This document shows, piece by piece, positions 1,976-11,049 of a stretch of 64,000 bases of DNA. The notes below the pieces were generated by a model, which saw only the letters and a program-made list of their open reading frames with translations, had not been told where the DNA came from and made no database searches. A program made the position numbers and the translations under genes. This stretch comes from Flavobacterium sp. UMI-01 (GTDB lineage: Bacteria; Bacteroidota; Bacteroidia; Flavobacteriales; Flavobacteriaceae), in the NCBI RefSeq assembly GCF_019656315.1, contig NZ_BPLU01000073.1:62001-126000 (forward strand), given 5' to 3'. Positions within the stretch are counted from its first letter, which is position 1, and each line of letters begins with the position of its first letter.

Positions 1976-2009
1976 AAAAGGGAATTAATTGATTAAAGGT
2001 TAAATTTAT

Positions 2010-2022
2010 CGAATGTCATTCG
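2010..2022. promoter_or_regulatory. Short palindrome upstream of DUF2911 gene
   Basis: CGAATGTCATTCG is a perfect 6+1+6 palindrome lying 35 bases upstream of the minus-strand ATG at 1975, beside a TAAATTTA sequence that resembles a -7 box. The size and position suit an operator, but a 13-base palindrome can occur by chance. Confidence 0.25.
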
Positions 2023-2086
2023 GATAACGGTAAAATTTGGTGTTAAAATTTTAAAATGAATCTAATGGCATAATAGAATAAAAGTC

Positions 2087-2094
2087 TAAATTTG
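2087..2094 (+). promoter_or_regulatory. Candidate -7 promoter box for the Gre-like gene
   Basis: TAAATTTG matches the Bacteroidota -7 consensus TAnnTTTG, 62 bases before the ATG at 2157. No clear -33 TTG is seen at the expected distance. Confidence 0.35.
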
Positions 2095-2156
2095 TTTTAA
2101 GGCATTGTAATTTGTAGTGTCTTGGCAACTAAGAACCTTAGCTCTTCAAAAAACAG

Positions 2157-2606
2157 ATGACTTTCAAACTAAAAATCCACCAGCATTATTTACGACTAGT
2201 ACAAGATAGAATCGATGTTTTCAGAGATATGATTTCGGGATTGACGGAAGATTCTAAAAATGATGCCAAAGGTTCCGCAGGTGATAAGCACGAAACGGCT
2301 TTGTCTATGATGCACTTGGAGCAAGAAAAGCTAAATACCAAATTAGCCGAAGTGCTTCATCAAAAAGCAGTTCTGGATAAAATAAATCCAGAGATTTGCT
2401 CAGAAATTATTTCTTTAGGAAGTTTGGTTAAGGCAAATGGGATTTATTTGTACTTGTCTTTGGCTTTGCCAAAAATAAATATCGATGGCGTGAATGTTAT
2501 TGCGTTATCACCTCAATCTCCTTTAGGTAATAAGTTAATGGGGAATACAGTAGGATTTGGTTTTGAGATTAATGGAACGAAGTATTTGATTGAGAGTGTT
2601 GAGTAA
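2157..2606 (+). CDS. Small GreA/GreB-like protein
   Basis: This is a 149-residue soluble protein of two parts. Residues about 5-80 are helical and Glu/Lys/Gln-rich, suggesting a coiled coil. Residues about 85-149 end in LSPQSPLGNKLMGNTVG followed by a hydrophobic strand, resembling the C-terminal FKBP-like domain of GreA/GreB (SPIARALIGKKVGD type motif), which docks on RNA polymerase. It could bind the secondary channel as a transcript-cleavage or stress factor. The classical acidic tip of GreA is not clear here, so activity may differ. Relatives in Flavobacterium are, as far as I recall, often labelled 3-oxoacyl-ACP synthase, which nothing in this sequence supports. It is monocistronic, with a TAAATTTG box 62 bases upstream. 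Confidence 0.6.
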   Translation: MTFKLKIHQHYLRLVQDRIDVFRDMISGLTEDSKNDAKGSAGDKHETALSMMHLEQEKLNTKLAEVLHQKAVLDKINPEICSEIISLGSLVKANGIYLYLSLALPKINIDGVNVIALSPQSPLGNKLMGNTVGFGFEINGTKYLIESVE

Positions 2607-2832
2607 AAAATCAATCAAAATCTATGTTGCTTGCATCTGTGTCTTCCGCGTCCCAATAATAAAGTGTTTTAAAACAATACTTAAAAGGATATACTTTTTC
2701 ATCAATTATGATTTTCATAATCCTCTTTTTATATCCAAACCTATCGAAATCATTACTAAAAAATAGGATTCCCTAAAAAAAACTTTTGTAAATTCGCGAC
2801 CTTAAAAGTTTACTATAAAACGAAATTAAATT

Positions 2833-3102
2833 ATGAGTAAAATTATGACAGTCGACATTTTGTCGAGTATTAAGGGAGCACAGCCATCGGAAAGCGTGAA
2901 CAAATTATTTGATGTGATAAAAAATGCACATCCGTCAAATGATAATTCCTTACATAATACCAATCGTAATTGTGTGTCTGTTAGTGATTTAAGAGAGGAT
3001 GTGGTGGTGGAAAGTTCGGCTATAGAGAAACAAATTATTTTAGAAAACTTCCCGAACAAGAAAAATGGATTTTTAGTGGTTGCTAAAGTTATAGAAGGAT
3101 AA
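2833..3102 (+). CDS. gatC: Probable divergent GatC subunit of tRNA amidotransferase
   Basis: This is an 89-residue protein whose stop lies 2 bases before gatA. The C-terminal half matches GatC: DLREDVVVES at 52-61 and NFPNKKNGFLVVAKVIE at 72-88 correspond to the family pattern LREDxVxxS and NAPxxxxGFFxVPKVIE, the segment that wraps around GatA in known GatCAB structures. The N-terminal half (SIKGAQPSESVNKLFDVIKN) lacks the usual HIAxLARLxL helix, which is why it looks hypothetical. GatC holds GatA and GatB together while Asp-tRNA(Asn) or Glu-tRNA(Gln) is amidated. Start ATG at 2833; an alternative ATG lies four codons in. A near-consensus -7 box (TAAATTCG, 2790-2797) precedes it. The overlapping minus-strand ORF (2826-3176) is a shadow. 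The assignment rests on motif and operon position. Confidence 0.72.
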   Translation: MSKIMTVDILSSIKGAQPSESVNKLFDVIKNAHPSNDNSLHNTNRNCVSVSDLREDVVVESSAIEKQIILENFPNKKNGFLVVAKVIEG

Positions 3103-3104
3103 AA

Positions 3105-4502
3105 ATGGATTCTCAGATAAAAAAAATACACCAGCAATTGGTGTCTAAACAAATTACTTGTACGGCTTTGGTACAAGAAAAATTAGACTTACTTAAAGAA
3201 AATAAATACAACTCAGTCAATTCTTTATTAGATAGTTTAGCGCTAGAATTGGCGGCTAAAGTAGATGCTAAAATAGCAAGTGGAGAAACAATCGGTTTGT
3301 TAGAAGGAATTCCGTTTGGGATTAAAGATGTGTACATGGTGCAAGGAACGTACACCACTGCAAGTTCTGAGTTGTTAACAAAATATAAATCACCTTACAC
3401 GGCTACTGCTATTCAAAAATTATTGGATGCGGGTGCGATTCCGTTGGTGAAAGAAAACTGCGATAGTTTTGGTCACGGTTCGTCTAGTGAAAATACCATT
3501 TTTGGAGCGGTGAAAAACGCTATCAATCCAGAATTGGTTGCTGGAGGTTCAAGTGGAGGTTCTGCGGTAAACGTAGCCAAAGATTACACGGTTTTTTCTA
3601 TTGGAGGTGATACGGGAGGTTCGATTCGTCAGCCTGCAGGTTATAATGATATTTACGGATTCAAACCTACTTATGGAAGGATTTCACGATACGGATTGAT
3701 GGCTTATGCATCTTCTACAGATTGCGTGGGACCTTTAGCAAAATCAATCGAAGATATCCGCATTGTATTGAACGTGATGAGCGGAAAAGATCCAAAAGAT
3801 CAAACTTCTATCACTTCAAACGAAATTAGTGAAGAAGCAATTGCAACTTCAAAAGTGAAAACGGTTGGTTATTTCAAAAACTTTATCGAAAGTGAAGCGA
3901 TTGATGCCCAAGTAAAAGCGGATTTCTTGGCGAGTATCGAAAAAATTAAAGCGAAAGGAATTGCTGTAAAAGAATTAGATTTCTTTAAATCGGATATTTT
4001 AGTTTCGACTTATTATACCTTGGCAATGGCGGAAACCGCTTCGAATTTATCACGTCTCGACGGAACCAATTACGGAAACCGAATTGAAGGAGAAAATTTG
4101 ATAGACACCTATGCGGTGACTCGTTCTGAAAACTTTTCAGAAGAAACCAAACGTAGAATCGTAGGGGGGAACCAAGTATTGTCTCAAGGTTTTTCTGATG
4201 CCATTTATTTAAAAGGATTGGGGGTAAGAGACCAAATTTCGGAGAATTTTAGTAAAGATTTTGAAGAGGTAGATATCGTTTTATCTCCAGTGACACCAAG
4301 TACGCCTCCTAAAATTGGAGATAGTTTGAAGGATCCGTTGGCGATGTACTTGTCAGATGCTTATACTGTTGGTTTCAGTTTAGGGCAATTGCCAACTTTA
4401 ACCGTGCCACAAGGAACAAGTACTGGGCTTCAAATTACAGCAGCAAAAAATAATGATGAATTAGTATTGCAATTTGCAAACTTCTTAAAAGATACACTAT
4501 AA
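3105..4502 (+). CDS. gatA: Asp-tRNA(Asn)/Glu-tRNA(Gln) amidotransferase subunit A
   Basis: This 465-residue amidase-signature enzyme releases ammonia from Gln or Asn and passes it to GatB. The Ser-cisSer-Lys triad is visible: Lys74 (GIKDVY), Ser149 (AGGSSGGSAV) and Ser173 (GGDTGGSIRQP), each offset by five from S. aureus GatA (Lys79, Ser154, Ser178). After the nucleophile comes GFKPTYGRISRYGL, the GatA-specific continuation that separates it from general amidases. Length is slightly under the family norm of about 480. The ATG follows the gatC stop by 2 bases. The stop codon overlaps the gatB ATG by one base (TAATG), implying coupled translation and stoichiometric assembly. Confidence 0.95.
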   Translation: MDSQIKKIHQQLVSKQITCTALVQEKLDLLKENKYNSVNSLLDSLALELAAKVDAKIASGETIGLLEGIPFGIKDVYMVQGTYTTASSELLTKYKSPYTATAIQKLLDAGAIPLVKENCDSFGHGSSSENTIFGAVKNAINPELVAGGSSGGSAVNVAKDYTVFSIGGDTGGSIRQPAGYNDIYGFKPTYGRISRYGLMAYASSTDCVGPLAKSIEDIRIVLNVMSGKDPKDQTSITSNEISEEAIATSKVKTVGYFKNFIESEAIDAQVKADFLASIEKIKAKGIAVKELDFFKSDILVSTYYTLAMAETASNLSRLDGTNYGNRIEGENLIDTYAVTRSENFSEETKRRIVGGNQVLSQGFSDAIYLKGLGVRDQISENFSKDFEEVDIVLSPVTPSTPPKIGDSLKDPLAMYLSDAYTVGFSLGQLPTLTVPQGTSTGLQITAAKNNDELVLQFANFLKDTL

Positions 4503-7500
4503 TGGAATTGGAACAATTAAATGAAGCTTTAAAAGCTCATGATTTAGAATTGGTAATCGGACTTGAAACGCACGTTCGATTGAATACCAAAACCAAGTTG
4601 TTTTGTTCTTGTCCTAACCAAGAAATAGAAACACCTAATCAAAATATATGTTCCGTTTGTACAGGACAAATGGGCGTTTTACCTGCCGTAAATAAAGAAG
4701 CAATTACCAAGGCGATTTATTTTGGTAAAGCGGTAGAATCATCCTTTAGTAATGAAGTGATTTCATGGGATAGAAAGCATTACGAATATCCAGATAACCC
4801 AAAAAATATTCAAATAACACAGTTTCATAATCCAATCATTCCTGATGGACAGGTGTCTTGTTATAGAAATGACGGTTCGCAATTTACGGTAAACCTAACA
4901 CAGGTTCATATCGAGGAAGATGCAGCGAAATTGATGCACGAAAAGAAAATTTCGTTAGTCGATTTTAATAAAGCTGGGGTTCCTCTTATTGAAATTGTAA
5001 CCGAACCTTGTATTCGCAATATCGAAGACGCTTCAACCTATGCGCAATACATTCAACGTATTGTTCAGAATTTAGGAATCTCTGAAGCTAATTTGGAAAA
5101 AGGAGAATTCAAATCGGATGTTTCGGTTTCCTTGCGTAAAATTAATTCGAATGTTTTGAACCCAAGAACCGAAATCAAAAACTTGAACTCGTTTAAGTTT
5201 ATGGTCGAAGCTTTGAAAGAAGAGGTCGAAAAACAATTCAATTATTACGAAGAACATAAAGAATTCAGACCTGACCAAACCACGGTTTTATGGGATGCTG
5301 ATTTGAAGCAAACCAAAACGATGCGTAAAAAAGAGTTCGAAGCCGATTACCGTTTTATTTCGGAGCCTGATTTACCGTTTGTAAATATCAAATCGGAAAT
5401 TGAAGCCATTACAGTGGATACTGCAGCTTTACCTTTTGCAGTAGAATCTATTTTGATTGGCGGTGGTGTTTTGCCACAAGATGCGAAGTTTTTCACTGCT
5501 GATGCCTTGCGTTCTAGGACTTTTGTTTCTTTGAATAATGCCATAAATGATCCTTCGTTTGTTGCAAAAACACTTACCAATACTATTAAAGCAGAAGATT
5601 ATGATAAAATTCATAATATCGAGCATTTAATAACCATTTTTGTGTTGTTTAAAGCAGAAAAGATTACGGCAGTTTTAGTTCAAAATGCGATTGCAGGTTA
5701 TTTGAAAGATCAAAATTTTGATTATAATAAATACTTCGCAGAAAACACCATTTCTGAAGATAAAATCCAAGAAGTAATAGAAAAAGTACTTTCAGAAAAT
5801 GAGGCTGTGGCCAATGATATCAAAGCAGGTGACCAAGGAAAAGCAGGAATTTTGGTTGGAAAAGTTTTAGGAATCATCGGGAAAGGAGCGAATGGAAAGG
5901 TCATCCGTCAAATTATTTTAGATAAATTAGGAGCAGCAGCGGTATTAGAAAAAGCTGCCGCTTCTGAAAAAGCTTCAAAAGAGATAACATTTGAAAATAA
6001 AGAAATTCAAGAAGAATCCCTTCCTGAAATTCCTATCATTATAAAAGATACGTACCGAACACATAAAATTTCGCAATTATCAGAAACCAACATCAATGAT
6101 GAAGTGTTGTTGTCAGGTTGGGTTGCGAGTGTTCGTGACCACGGAGATTTGATGTTTATCGATTTGCGTGATTCGAGTTATGAAATCTTCCAAGTGAATA
6201 TTAGTAGAGAAACGTTTCCTAATATCGATGAGTTGGTAAAATTGAAACCAGAATCTGTGATTTCGGTAAAAGGAATTGTGATTGGTCGTAACGAAGACGA
6301 TTACAATGCAGGTTTACGTACCGGTAAAATCGAATTAAAAGCATCTGAATTAGAGGTGTTAAACTTGTCTAAAACCTTGCCTTTTGAGATTAAAAGAGCG
6401 GCCAAAACCAATGAGGCAACTCGTTTTCAATACAAGTTTTTGGATCACAGAAATGAAGAGGTTCGTAGAGCGATTGTTAACCGTCATAAAGTAATTAAGT
6501 TATTGCGTGACATTCTTGATGAAGAAGAGTTTTTAGAAATAGAAACACCAATTTTGAGTGCCGGAACGGATGAAGGAGCCCGTGAATTTATTGTGCCTAC
6601 TCGTAAAGGGGTAGGGATGTTTTATACACTACCACAAGCACCACAACAGTTCAAGCAGATGTTGATGGTGAGTGGGTATGAGAAGTATTTCCAAATTGCA
6701 CGTTGTTTTAGAGATGAGGATTCTCGTGGAGATCGTCAGCCTGAATTTACGCAGCTGGATATGGAAATGGCGTATGCTAGCATGCAACAAATTATCGATT
6801 TGAACACCAAAATGTTCAATGAAATTGTAACTAAAATTTATGGTAAAAAATGGATTTTACATCCGTTTGAAATCATAACTTATAAAGACGCGATGGATTT
6901 CTACGGTTGTGACCGTCCTGATTTGCGTTACGGTTTAAAAATGCAAGACATTACCGAAATCGTAAAAGATACCACTTTCCAAGTTTTCTCTAAACCAATT
7001 GAAGAAGGTGGAATCGTAAAATGTATCAAAGTTTCGACTGCAGAGCAAGGAAATAAACGTATGTCGAAAGGACAAATTGAAGCGTTGACTGCTGTAGCAC
7101 AACAACATGGTTTGGGTGGATTGGCTTACATCATTGTAAATGAAGGCGAATTGCAATCGCCTATTATTAAGTTCTTAGGTGAAGAAATCGCAGCTGGAAT
7201 AATCAAAGCTACAGATGCGCAAGTAGGTGATATTGTATTCTTCTCGGCGGCAGATTATGCAACGGCTAACAAAGCCTTAGATGCTGTTCGTCAAGAAATG
7301 GGTAGAATGTTGAACTTGATTAATCCGAAAGAATTGCGTCCGGCTTGGGTAGTTGATTTCCCAATGTTTGAAAGAACCGATGAGGGAAGATGGACATTTA
7401 CACACAATCCATTCTCGATGCCTGCGATTTATGATTTAGAGAAACACATGAAAGGAGACGATGACGAAATCGGAACCATCATTGCGCAACAATACGATAT

Positions 7501-7834
7501 TATCTTAAACGGGTATGAAATAGGTGGAGGTTCTGTTCGTGCGCACAAATCAGAAATCTTAGAAGCAACCTATAGAAATATGGGGTACAACAAAGAAGAA
7601 ATGATGAAGAGTGTTGGAACGATGTACAAAGCCTTCCAATACGGAGCACCACCACACGGAGGAATTGCATGGGGAATTGACCGTTTAATGATGATTTTAG
7701 AGAAAAAAGCTTCGATTCGTGAGGTAATGGCGTTTCCTAAAACAGGTTCTAGTGAAGATTTATTATTCGGAGCACCATCGATTTTATCAGATAAAAAGGT
7801 AGAAGAAATGAATGTGAAGATTATGAGAAAGTAG
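4502..7834 (+). CDS. gatB-aspS: Fusion of amidotransferase subunit GatB with aspartyl-tRNA synthetase
   Basis: One 1110-residue frame carries two enzymes. Residues 1 to about 480 are GatB: IGLETHVRLNTKTKLF, a CxC/CxxC zinc site (Cys35, 37, 50, 53), the VDFNKAGVPLIEIVTEP motif and a YqeY-like tail ending near GKANGKVIRQIILDKLG. An Ala/Glu/Lys-rich linker (about 480-515) leads into a full-length bacterial AspRS (about 516-1110): anticodon-binding OB fold (GWVASVRDHGDLMFIDLRD), class II motif 2 (FRDEDSRGDRQPEFTQLDME), the bacterial GAD insertion, and motif 3 (GIAWGIDRLMM). AspRS charges tRNA with Asp; GatB phosphorylates and amidates Asp-tRNA(Asn) or Glu-tRNA(Gln). The fusion should hand the mischarged tRNA over directly, as a covalent transamidosome. 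The His in RDHG is the residue type linked to non-discriminating AspRS in Pseudomonas. A terminator follows at 7866. I see no internal stop or frameshift. Confidence 0.95.
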   Translation: MELEQLNEALKAHDLELVIGLETHVRLNTKTKLFCSCPNQEIETPNQNICSVCTGQMGVLPAVNKEAITKAIYFGKAVESSFSNEVISWDRKHYEYPDNPKNIQITQFHNPIIPDGQVSCYRNDGSQFTVNLTQVHIEEDAAKLMHEKKISLVDFNKAGVPLIEIVTEPCIRNIEDASTYAQYIQRIVQNLGISEANLEKGEFKSDVSVSLRKINSNVLNPRTEIKNLNSFKFMVEALKEEVEKQFNYYEEHKEFRPDQTTVLWDADLKQTKTMRKKEFEADYRFISEPDLPFVNIKSEIEAITVDTAALPFAVESILIGGGVLPQDAKFFTADALRSRTFVSLNNAINDPSFVAKTLTNTIKAEDYDKIHNIEHLITIFVLFKAEKITAVLVQNAIAGYLKDQNFDYNKYFAENTISEDKIQEVIEKVLSENEAVANDIKAGDQGKAGILVGKVLGIIGKGANGKVIRQIILDKLGAAAVLEKAAASEKASKEITFENKEIQEESLPEIPIIIKDTYRTHKISQLSETNINDEVLLSGWVASVRDHGDLMFIDLRDSSYEIFQVNISRETFPNIDELVKLKPESVISVKGIVIGRNEDDYNAGLRTGKIELKASELEVLNLSKTLPFEIKRAAKTNEATRFQYKFLDHRNEEVRRAIVNRHKVIKLLRDILDEEEFLEIETPILSAGTDEGAREFIVPTRKGVGMFYTLPQAPQQFKQMLMVSGYEKYFQIARCFRDEDSRGDRQPEFTQLDMEMAYASMQQIIDLNTKMFNEIVTKIYGKKWILHPFEIITYKDAMDFYGCDRPDLRYGLKMQDITEIVKDTTFQVFSKPIEEGGIVKCIKVSTAEQGNKRMSKGQIEALTAVAQQHGLGGLAYIIVNEGELQSPIIKFLGEEIAAGIIKATDAQVGDIVFFSAADYATANKALDAVRQEMGRMLNLINPKELRPAWVVDFPMFERTDEGRWTFTHNPFSMPAIYDLEKHMKGDDDEIGTIIAQQYDIILNGYEIGGGSVRAHKSEILEATYRNMGYNKEEMMKSVGTMYKAFQYGAPPHGGIAWGIDRLMMILEKKASIREVMAFPKTGSSEDLLFGAPSILSDKKVEEMNVKIMRK

Positions 7835-7865
7835 ATTTCTCAAATTTTATAAATTAAAGTAAAAA

Positions 7866-7901
7866 CGGATTCGTACTGAAGAGTATGAATCCGCTTTTTT
7901 T
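7866..7901 (+). terminator. Rho-independent terminator of the gatC-gatA-gatB::aspS operon
   Basis: Stem CGGATTCGTACT (7866-7877) pairs with AGTATGAATCCG (7882-7893) with one mismatch around a GAAG loop. A run of Ts follows at 7895-7901. It lies 32 bases after the fusion-gene stop. Confidence 0.85.
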
Positions 7902-7943
7902 ATTGTGTAAAAATGATTTGTAATACTGTTTTTATGAAACTAG

Positions 7944-8007
7944 TTTTTAGCCACGAATTCACGAATTAATTCATTAGAAAATCAATTCGTGATTTCGTGG
8001 CTAAAAA
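7944..8007 (-). terminator. Large inverted repeat, likely trmH-family gene terminator
   Basis: Arms 7944-7967 and 7984-8007 (outer part TTTTTAGCCACGAA / TTCGTGGCTAAAAA) match over 24 bases with one mismatch around a 16-base loop. It starts right after the methyltransferase stop codon (8008-8010) on the minus strand and ends in a T run on that strand. The core CCACGAATT recurs at 35006, so it may belong to a dispersed palindrome family. Confidence 0.7.
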
Positions 8008-8466
8008 TTAAGACCTAGGTTTATTAAGCCCTCTATCATAAAGCACAATCGTCCCTGCAACCGATACATTCAAGCTCTTGGTAGATTTGAATTTTACCAA
8101 ATGATGACATTTGGCAATAGCTTGTTTTGAAAGTCCGTTGTCTTCGGCACCTAATAAATAAACGCAGCGTCTTGGGTGTTCGAAAGTTTCTAAATCTTCG
8201 GCTCTTTCGTCAAGTTCAACACCAACTAAGCGAGCACCTTTCGGTAAGTTTTTGAAGAAATCTTCAAAATTCTCATAATGGAAATACGGCATCGATTTTA
8301 CAGCATTCTCAGTGTCACAGGCTTGTTTGGCATAGCGGTTACCGATGGTAAAAATAAAGCTAGCGCCAAGGTTTTGTGCTGAGCGCCATAGTACGCCTAA
8401 GTTTTCAGGAGTTTTGCCGTTTTGGATTCCGATTCCGAAAAATTCATTTACAAAGTTGTCATTCAT
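8008..8466 (-). CDS. SPOUT-family (TrmH/SpoU-type) RNA methyltransferase
   Basis: This 152-residue protein is a minimal SPOUT domain without an N-terminal RNA-binding extension. SpoU motifs are visible: motif 1 NGKTPENLGVLWRSAQNLGA (Asn and Arg that bind substrate), motif 2 YLLGAEDNGLS and motif 3 KSLNVSVAGTIVLYDR. Together these form the trefoil knot that binds S-adenosylmethionine. Family members methylate ribose 2'-OH groups of tRNA or rRNA; the exact target is not deducible. I chose the ATG at 8466 (MNDNF) over the one at 8481, because a consensus promoter (TTG-N20-TACTTTTG) ends at 8471 and would overlap the longer reading; this leaves a leaderless or nearly leaderless mRNA. Confidence 0.85.
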   Translation of the reverse strand: MNDNFVNEFFGIGIQNGKTPENLGVLWRSAQNLGASFIFTIGNRYAKQACDTENAVKSMPYFHYENFEDFFKNLPKGARLVGVELDERAEDLETFEHPRRCVYLLGAEDNGLSKQAIAKCHHLVKFKSTKSLNVSVAGTIVLYDRGLNKPRS

Positions 8467-8470
8467 GGGG

Positions 8471-8501
8471 CAAAAGTACAAACTGTTGGTAGTATTTTCA
8501 A
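8471..8501 (-). promoter_or_regulatory. Promoter giving a leaderless mRNA for the SPOUT methyltransferase
   Basis: On the minus strand, a -33 TTG (8499-8501) is followed after 20 bases by TACTTTTG (8478 down to 8471), matching the Bacteroidota consensus. Only four bases separate it from the ATG at 8466, so transcription should begin at or next to the start codon. Confidence 0.6.
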
Positions 8502-8636
8502 TTTTTTGATGCTCTGTGCTGACTTTTAGATTTTTGGTTCATTCAAAAATGTCACGGGTTTATCATGATTTATGCTGATTTTAAACACTAGATTGTATTT
8601 GTGTTGTATGTAATTGAGTGTTATTTGGTTTTTAAA

Positions 8637-8701
8637 ACTCCGCTAGGAGTGACCTTTTTGTAGCAAAAGATATTTTAGGATTTTTTTAGCTCCGGAGGAG
8701 C
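8637..8701. repeat. Tandem CTCC-loop-GGAG hairpin repeats
   Basis: Two short palindromes, ACTCC-gcta-GGAGT (8637-8650) and GCTCC-gga-GGAGC (8689-8701), lie 39 bases apart, and each leads into a T-rich stretch. From memory, similar 'ctccgtaggag...tttgtag' units are scattered through Flavobacterium genomes. Copy number cannot be checked here. Confidence 0.45.
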
Positions 8702-8842
8702 GGGCTGTTTTTTAATCGGTATTTTGGGAAACGACAAAGTTTTAAAAAATATTCGGGTGCATTTGTAATTGATGTTGTTATTTGCAGGGACATGCGTGAG
8801 GGATAGGAGCAATCCGCCATAGCGGAGCGGATAGCCCGACAG

Positions 8843-8897
8843 CATTAAGTAAAGGGGCTTAATAAACGAAACCAAAAGTTAGCCCCTTTGCTTAATG
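8843..8897. repeat. 17-base stem with 21-base loop, part of a structured element
   Basis: Arm CATTAAGTAAAGGGGCT (8843-8859) pairs with AGCCCCTTTGCTTAATG (8881-8897); the only non-Watson-Crick position is a T/G that would be a U-G wobble in RNA. It directly follows the 'gagggataggagcaatccgc' and 'agcggatagcccgac' segments (8800-8840). The whole looks like a dispersed non-coding repeat or a structured RNA rather than a simple terminator, as no T run follows. Confidence 0.55.
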
Positions 8898-9065
8898 GTG
8901 GCACGCCCAAATAAAAAAAAATAATTTTAAGGATGACGATTTTAAAGGAGAAAAGGGTATTGTTTTTTGTCGTTATGGCTGATTTTTCTATCGAAATTCA
9001 CATTATTTGTTGATAACTTAAATCGTTAAAACAGTATTTAAGTCGTGTTCTAATTTCTGTTTTTA

Positions 9066-9073
9066 TATATTTG
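9066..9073 (+). promoter_or_regulatory. Candidate -7 promoter box of gyrB
   Basis: TATATTTG fits the TAnnTTTG consensus, 35 bases before the gyrB ATG. The matching -33 element is weak. Confidence 0.5.
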
Positions 9074-9081
9074 CGTGTTAG

Positions 9082-11049
<1,968 letters not shown>

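What the first reader, a model, noticed from the sequence alone, without database searches (positions are those of the whole stretch)
2833..3102. Divergent GatC hidden in a small 'hypothetical' gene
The C-terminal half (LREDVVVES, NFPNKKNGFLVVAKVIE) matches the GatA-wrapping segment of GatC, but the N-terminal LARLxL helix is missing or replaced. Position immediately before gatA supports it. A changed N-terminus might reflect altered docking onto the GatB::AspRS fusion.
Basis: partly seen in the sequence, partly recalled or inferred. Interest (0 to 1): 0.65.

Follow-up and report, generated by a model that had tools for sequence, protein, structure and literature searches.

The report
Shortened GatC of a fused transamidosome
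A small unnamed gene encodes an unusual GatC-type subunit that, in every case examined, sits beside an enzyme in which two tRNA enzymes are fused into one chain, and the trio probably makes the amino acid asparagine directly on its tRNA in bacteria that mostly lack the usual asparagine-making enzyme.

Summary
Window 2833-3102 encodes 89 aa. The C-terminal half (about 46-88) is GatC-like; the N-terminal half has no detectable similarity to ordinary GatC. The genome has no other gatC match. The gene is not decaying: over 81 sequences residues 1-32 are its most conserved part. In all 75 loci with enough DNA it is followed by gatA and a GatB::AspRS fusion. The host also has separate AspRS, AsnRS and GlnRS, so this GatCAB is not needed for tRNA-Gln. 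The window genome matches neither AsnA nor AsnB models. In 199 family genomes, 24 of 38 with a fusion-length GatB have no AsnB-type match, against 6 of 161 without. All 75 fusions carry the histidine seen in mycobacterial non-discriminating AspRS; the host's own AspRS has lysine. tRNA-Asn has the U1-A72 pair that GatCAB needs. Best reading: a covalently tethered asparagine transamidosome making Asn on tRNA-Asn in place of asparagine synthetase, with a remodelled GatC. Activity, GatA contact and docking of the new N-terminus are untested; both structure predictions failed. I saw no description of this fusion in the open-access searches.

The parts
2833..3102 (+). gatC-type gene, 89 aa; residues 1-32 a strongly conserved N-terminus without detectable GatC similarity, 33-52 a variable stretch, about 46-88 the GatC C-terminal segment
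3105..4502 (+). gatA, 465 aa; Lys74, Ser149 and Ser173 line up with the Lys-Ser-Ser residues of solved GatA chains (which residues form the triad is recalled)
   Evidence: Pfam Amidase 7.5e-114; TIGR00132 438.8 bits, under its cut-off of 481.1; alignments to 4wj3_A, 3h0l_A, 2df4_A
4502..7834 (+). GatB::AspRS fusion, 1110 aa: GatB about 16-476, variable linker about 477-516, bacterial-type AspRS with GAD domain about 517-1109
6140..6142 (+). codon of His547 in RDHG of the AspRS anticodon-binding domain, the residue seen in mycobacterial non-discriminating AspRS

Best explanation
The gene encodes a divergent, shortened GatC-type subunit of a heterotrimeric amidotransferase whose GatB is covalently fused to a second AspRS. 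Proposed mechanism: the fused AspRS aspartylates tRNA-Asn (inferred from its residue signature and genome content); the Asp-tRNA-Asn is handed within the same complex to GatB, which activates it; GatA supplies ammonia from glutamine; Asn-tRNA-Asn results. The GatC C-terminal segment wraps GatA as usual (inferred from homology). The new N-terminus binds a surface of this particular complex (inferred). The physiological role is tRNA-dependent asparagine synthesis in Flavobacteriaceae that lack asparagine synthetase; the cell's own AspRS and AsnRS serve ordinary tRNA-Asp and free Asn.
For: GatC homology limited to the C-terminal half. gatC-gatA-long fusion frame in 75 of the 80 loci, the other 5 ending at the contig edge. 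Host has separate AspRS, AsnRS and GlnRS and no asnB or asnA match. Family sample: no TIGR01536 match in 24 of 38 genomes with a fusion-length GatB against 6 of 161 without, Fisher p 6e-16; 11 of 11 AsnB-like proteins fetched from fusion genomes fall under the NF006949 (PRK09431) cut-off, while 3 of 3 fetched from genomes without the fusion exceed it. Histidine at the RDHG position in 75 of 75 fusions, Lys in the host's own AspRS and His in none of 14 separate AspRS aligned, His in mycobacterial ND-AspRS, Leu in Thermus AspRS. tRNA-Asn U1-A72 in the window genome (sequence printed). GatA catalytic residues and GatB cysteines kept. dN below dS in all 10 pairs. The Deinococcus/Thermus second-AspRS route and the Bdellovibrio route are experimental precedents (PMC4206432).
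Against: No activity is shown. One histidine is a signature, not proof, of relaxed tRNA specificity, and its role is recalled. 14 of the 38 genomes with a fusion-length GatB do have a TIGR01536 match; in six (G061, G087, G106, G185, G190, G253) at least one match was not printed, and the second matches of G166 and G186 were printed but not typed. That the 38 are fusions rests on frame length. AsnA was searched only in the 60-genome sample. Related genomes are not independent; the genus tree needs three changes of the label and does not rule out one. U1-A72 also occurs in relatives without the fusion. The window GatC is under Pfam's and TIGR00135's cut-offs.
Confidence: 0.75

Rival explanations
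1. The N-terminus is not new: it is the ordinary GatC two-helix hairpin, shortened by about eight residues and diverged past sequence detection, with unchanged docking.
For: MAFFT places VNKLFDVIKNA on the second canonical helix (LNKILEFVDKL of L031) with an eight-residue gap before it; the low-confidence model shows short helices at 10-13 and 18-30.
Against: An HMM of 14 canonical N-terminal halves scores the real sequences no better than shuffles; hhalign of the two families aligns only residues 50-88; residues 1-32 are more conserved than the C-terminal part, unlike in the 14 ordinary GatC.
Confidence: 0.4
2. The operon is a vestige or a spare: AsnRS covers Asn-tRNA and the GatCAB::AspRS is dispensable.
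For: AsnRS is in all five fusion-bearing genomes of the 60-genome sample; PMC4206432 says GatCAB may be vestigial in some genomes that have an Asn synthetase (section 17).
Against: 37 fusion proteins average 87% column identity; GatA and GatB motifs kept; dN below dS in all 10 gatC pairs; anticorrelation with AsnB.
Confidence: 0.1
3. The fused AspRS-GatCAB makes Asn-tRNA for a dedicated use (for example a natural product or cell-wall step), or protects against an AspRS inhibitor, rather than for general Asn supply.
For: A second synthetase beside a complete set can mark a special role (general knowledge; no call).
Against: The ORFs read up to about 25 kb look like housekeeping genes, named by eye, and a gyrB homologue lies in the flanks of 50 of 68 long loci; no tRNA gene in the window; the AsnB pattern points to Asn supply. 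The rest of the window was not read for clusters.
Confidence: 0.08
4. The protein is not GatC: the C-terminal match is chance or convergence in a small protein upstream of gatA.
For: Window protein under the Pfam and TIGR00135 cut-offs; hhalign probability only 9% on a shallow profile; in the PDB profile search the only GatC is at E 1.1.
Against: Pfam GatC matched by 74 of 74 homologues, best E 6.2e-6, while no other family matches more than 3; one homologue passes the Pfam cut-off (G010, 24.7 bits); 0 of 2000 shuffles reach the window score; position and absence of another gatC match.
Confidence: 0.05

Closest known systems
GatC of bacterial GatCAB (PF02686, TIGR00135)
   Same: C-terminal segment (LRxD ... 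N-P ... V-KV), size class, gene next to gatA, only gatC match of the genome
   Different: Residues 1-52 show no sequence similarity to the canonical N-terminal half and are about ten residues shorter; under curated cut-offs; found with a fused GatB::AspRS
Second-AspRS plus GatCAB route of Deinococcus and Thermus (asparagine made on tRNA-Asn beside AsnRS and GlnRS)
   Same: AsnRS and GlnRS present, an extra AspRS, GatCAB, no asparagine synthetase (PMC4206432: abstract, sections 16-17, passages)
   Different: There the extra AspRS is archaeal-type and a separate protein; here it is bacterial-type with a GAD domain and fused to GatB
[quoted passage not shown]
   Same: Same enzymes and presumed hand-over of mischarged tRNA
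   Different: A complex of separate proteins that needs tRNA in the mycobacterial case (PMC8406222, passages); here two partners are one polypeptide
NF009460 (PRK12820), bifunctional AspRS/GatC
   Same: Natural fusion of AspRS to a GatCAB subunit
   Different: Fused to GatC, not GatB; the window fusion scores 466 bits against its cut-off of 1379, over the AspRS part only
gatC-gatA fusion polypeptide of Mycobacterium smegmatis (PMC7541841, listing and start of abstract only)
   Same: Covalent linkage of GatCAB parts
   Different: Joins GatC to GatA and causes mistranslation, by its title

Membership tests
GatC (PF02686 / TIGR00135) | C-terminal GatA-wrapping segment | tested here: met
   Pfam 46-83 vs 39-66; 74 of 74 homologues match; shuffles 0 of 2000
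GatC (PF02686 / TIGR00135) | N-terminal helical half (LARLxL and second helix) | tested here: not met
   At sequence level no better than shuffles; hhalign aligns only 50-88; structure not resolved
GatC (PF02686 / TIGR00135) | Curated score cut-offs | tested here: not met
   21.4 vs 23 and 21.0 vs 47.1 bits; a close homologue in G010 reaches 24.7. So I call it a GatC-type subunit, not a canonical GatC
GatC (PF02686 / TIGR00135) | Encoded with gatA/gatB and the only gatC of the genome | tested here: met
GatC (PF02686 / TIGR00135) | Physical contact with GatA | tested here: inconclusive
   GatC-GatA read-through model: mean pLDDT 46, pTM 0.42, GatC part below 50
tRNA-dependent asparagine pathway (ND-AspRS + GatCAB) | AspRS that accepts tRNA-Asn | tested here: inconclusive
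   His at the RDHG position in 75 of 75 fusions as in mycobacterial ND-AspRS; no activity data
tRNA-dependent asparagine pathway (ND-AspRS + GatCAB) | Intact GatA glutaminase and GatB residues | tested here: met
   (which residues are catalytic is recalled)
tRNA-dependent asparagine pathway (ND-AspRS + GatCAB) | tRNA-Asn with U1-A72 | tested here: met
   Read from the printed genes of the window genome, G005, G010, G030 and G029; the script's own label named position 73 by mistake
tRNA-dependent asparagine pathway (ND-AspRS + GatCAB) | No AsnA/AsnB, so the route would be the only Asn source | tested here: met
   Window genome: no match. Not universal: 14 of 38 fusion-length genomes have some TIGR01536 match
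tRNA-dependent asparagine pathway (ND-AspRS + GatCAB) | Asn formed in vivo | not testable with these tools
   needs the auxotroph complementation

The most novel reading that the evidence does not exclude
A transamidosome that has become largely one machine by gene fusion (GatB::AspRS) has exchanged the canonical GatC N-terminal hairpin for a new 32-residue module that docks GatA/GatC onto the tethered AspRS or gates Asp-tRNA-Asn transfer, so that mischarged tRNA never leaves the complex; this replaced asparagine synthetase in a sizeable part of the Flavobacteriaceae.
Probability: 0.3. Interest if true: 0.72.

Novelty: new variant of a known kind. Interest (0 to 1): 0.6.

Why it matters
Handing a wrongly charged tRNA from AspRS to GatCAB without leakage is a central question of this pathway. 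A natural covalent tether, kept in many species beside a complete set of ordinary synthetases, gives a clean system to test channelling and what GatC contributes. It would also explain how Flavobacteriaceae without asparagine synthetase make asparagine, which models that look only for AsnA/AsnB would miss. Part of this is already in print: the 2014 survey of 547 genera (PMC4206432, section 16) counts Bacteroidetes among 18 genera with AsnRS, GlnRS and GatCAB and no Asn synthetase. But it places the second AspRS of those 18 only in Deinococcus-Thermus, and names Actinomycetales and Clostridiaceae for further extra copies, so a GatB-fused second AspRS in Bacteroidetes seems not to have been recognised there (inference; its tables were not read).

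Tried and rejected
Structure prediction: the GatC-GatA read-through chain (39 rows) and the full fusion (37 rows) gave mean pLDDT 46 and 48, pTM 0.42 and 0.27; the rows were probably too alike. No fold search was run. A first alignment with GatC-only rows looked misaligned and was dropped.

PDB profile search with 74 GatC homologues: 13 rows. Ten are TAL-effector or designed repeat proteins, down to E 2.7e-11 for the whole sequence but with no stretch passing on its own; two are a viral glycoprotein (E 0.77 and 3.8); one is GatC 3h0l_C, residues 54-88, E 1.1. I take the first twelve as chance.

A recurring weak match of residues 25-82 in 845-879-aa frames of relatives was read in one case as a ClpB-like ATPase (L008, by eye) and dropped.

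By eye the second canonical helix resembles VNKLFDVIKNA; the shuffle test did not support it, so it is kept only in a rival. Decay of the gene: rejected. Recent copy of the host AspRS: rejected, the fused domain is 39.6% identical to it. Rfam in 2000-9200: nothing at gathering scores. Literature: no paper on a natural GatB-AspRS fusion seen in the listings (open-access library only; titles and abstract starts; 10 of 25 listed). The anticodon-domain mutagenesis paper (Chuawong and Hendrickson 2006) was not held.

Full report
What is there. Window 2833-3102(+) is an 89-aa ORF two bases before gatA (3105-4502), which overlaps by one base an 1110-aa GatB::AspRS fusion (4502-7834). Pfam assigns Amidase, GatB_N, GatB_Yqey, an OB-fold anticodon domain, class II synthetase and GAD domain to the partners; NCBIfam gives GatA (under its cut-off), GatB and bacterial AspRS. 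The 89-aa protein matches Pfam GatC at residues 46-83, E 2.9e-4, 21.4 bits against a cut-off of 23. The genome (G000, 99.94% complete, 76 contigs) has no other GatC match. Contigs of relatives share lengths with named Flavobacterium records (G005 with F. flevense, G029 with F. taihuense), so the genus is Flavobacterium by inference.

Two halves. Split at LRxD, the C-terminal half of the window protein scores above all of 2000 shuffles on an HMM of 14 ordinary GatC from the same order; over all 81 family members the median (6.7 bits) is reached by 0.2% of shuffles. The N-terminal halves do not differ from shuffles. hhalign aligns only residues 50-88, at 9% probability. Yet the N-terminus is the most conserved part: mean column conservation over 81 sequences is 0.94 for 1-32, 0.68 for 33-52 and 0.86 for 53-89. 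dN is below dS in all 10 pairs of five genus members, in residues 1-45 and 46-89 alike.

Distribution. A scan of genome contigs confirmed 177 relatives and kept the best 80, mostly in Flavobacterium, Lutibacter, Polaribacter, Algibacter, Seonamhaeicola, Confluentibacter and allied genera. In 75 of the 80 a frame of gatA length and a following long frame were found; 73 of the long frames are complete at 1108-1122 aa and two (L117, L158) run off the contig. The other five loci (L109, L134, L152, L167, L178) end before gatA is complete. A gyrB homologue lies in the flanks of 50 of 68 long loci (the gene name is by eye), which suggests an old, vertically inherited place. In 199 genomes of the family, the window's included, 38 have GatB, and all 38 matches lie in frames of 1115-1130 aa, the fusion's length. 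By contrast, of 23 same-order genomes from other families 14 have GatB in frames of 482-499 aa, the same 14 have a GatC over the Pfam cut-off, and none of those 14 has a GlnRS match. So ordinary GatCAB there fits Gln-tRNA formation, while the fused form sits beside GlnRS in 4 of the 5 fusion-bearing genomes of that 60-genome sample; the fifth, G030, is in about 590 pieces.

Genome content. G000 carries a separate AspRS, an AsnRS and a GlnRS but no match to asnB (TIGR01536) or asnA (TIGR00669). In the genus sample (G000-G036, 37 genomes), five have the fusion (G000, G005, G010, G029, G030): four have no match to either family, and the fifth (G010) has one 615-aa protein that scores 282 bits on the AsnB model NF006949, cut-off 499. 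Of the 32 others, 29 have at least one match to AsnA or TIGR01536; G022, G026 and the 60%-complete G033 have none. In the 199-genome sample 24 of 38 fusion-length genomes lack a TIGR01536 match against 6 of 161 others (odds ratio 44, p 6e-16). One search prints all 169 matching genomes and 20 of the 30 without a match; I placed the rest by their absence from the 169. AsnB-like proteins that I fetched from fusion genomes (11: L103, L215-L220, L224-L227) all fall under the NF006949 cut-off (249-312 bits); three controls from genomes without the fusion score 725-959. Fourteen fusion-length genomes have a TIGR01536 match: in eight every match is printed and spans nearly the whole model, unlike the three controls, whose matches end at 384-387; in six at least one match was not printed. 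The second matches of G166 and G186 were not typed. AsnA was not searched in the 199. Genus g23 holds both states: G062 with the fusion and one protein under the cut-off, G247 without the fusion and with a protein of 958.7 bits.

Which tRNA. tRNA-Asn of the window genome, G005, G010 and G030 begins with U1, which pairs with A72 (read from the sequences printed; the script's label took position 73 by mistake), and G029's does too. The five others printed (G022, G020, G013, G009 and G046, all without the fusion) do so as well, so this is a met requirement, not a discriminator. PMC9976931 (passages) and PMC4206432 (sections 16-17, passages) state that U1-A72 marks the substrate. In the AspRS anticodon domain the fusion reads RDHG; so do the mycobacterial enzymes 4o2d and 4rmf, while Thermus reads RDLG and 6wom RDKG; only five of 14 matching chains were printed. 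Of 14 separate AspRS aligned, none has the histidine: seven of eight genus members read RDKG (the host's own included) and one RNKG; the six of other families read RDLG (3), RDFG, RDKG and RKLG. All 75 fusions have the histidine: 69 by pattern and 6 read from the printed sequence. That this position governs tRNA-Asn acceptance is recalled (Bernard 2006; Chuawong and Hendrickson 2006, of which only the title was seen).

Intact machinery. GatA keeps the amidase motifs against solved GatA chains, GatB the cysteines and core; 37 fusions average 87% column identity. The fused AspRS is 36-40% identical to 14 separate AspRS of the order, the host's own included; the fused GatB is 28-41% identical to 14 unfused GatB over the parts that align. 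So the fusion is not a recent copy of either.

Mechanism proposed. Shown: gene order, fusion, sequence signatures, genome content. Inferred: the fused AspRS charges tRNA-Asn with Asp; GatB and GatA amidate it in the same complex; this is the cell's Asn supply. The precedent is experimental in Deinococcus, Thermus and Bdellovibrio (PMC4206432 abstract and sections 16-17). GatC's role there is described as a small scaffold that stabilises the complex (PMC8406222, passages). Here the C-terminal segment is kept while the N-terminus is new. Since the variant GatC and fused GatB occur together in all 75 loci, and GatC over the Pfam cut-off with unfused GatB in all 14 order genomes, a functional link is attractive, but one ancestral event would give the same pattern.

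Limits. The tree from separate AspRS (34 genus members, 4 of them with the fusion, and 3 of the order; G003, G030 and G033 left out for partial or missing genes) needs three changes of the label and does not exclude one, so the within-genus contrast may be one event. The Fisher test treats genomes as independent.

Noticed in passing
G022 and G026 (whole genomes): Two sister Flavobacterium genomes match neither AsnA, nor TIGR01536, nor GatB: no recognisable asparagine route.
   Followed up: partly
L258:304-2427(-), window genome C7: GlnRS of the window genome is 707 aa, with about 150 residues beyond the usual C-terminus; no Pfam match past residue 537 in the 645 residues scanned. Open frames of 692-759 aa are seen in many genus members.
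   Followed up: partly
2157-2606: 149-aa ORF with a weak GreA/GreB C-terminal match (E 0.036, under cut-off) upstream of gatC; a homologue lies in the flanks of 31 of 68 long loci.
   Followed up: no
about 2778-2799: Promoter-like stretch AAAACTTTTGTAAATTCGC upstream of gatC recurs with small changes in most of the Flavobacterium loci aligned (18 sequences, chosen by me).
   Followed up: no
L111 (Lentimicrobium sp. MAG): A contig labelled Lentimicrobium carries a gatC 88% identical to the window's; perhaps mis-binned Flavobacterium DNA.
   Followed up: no
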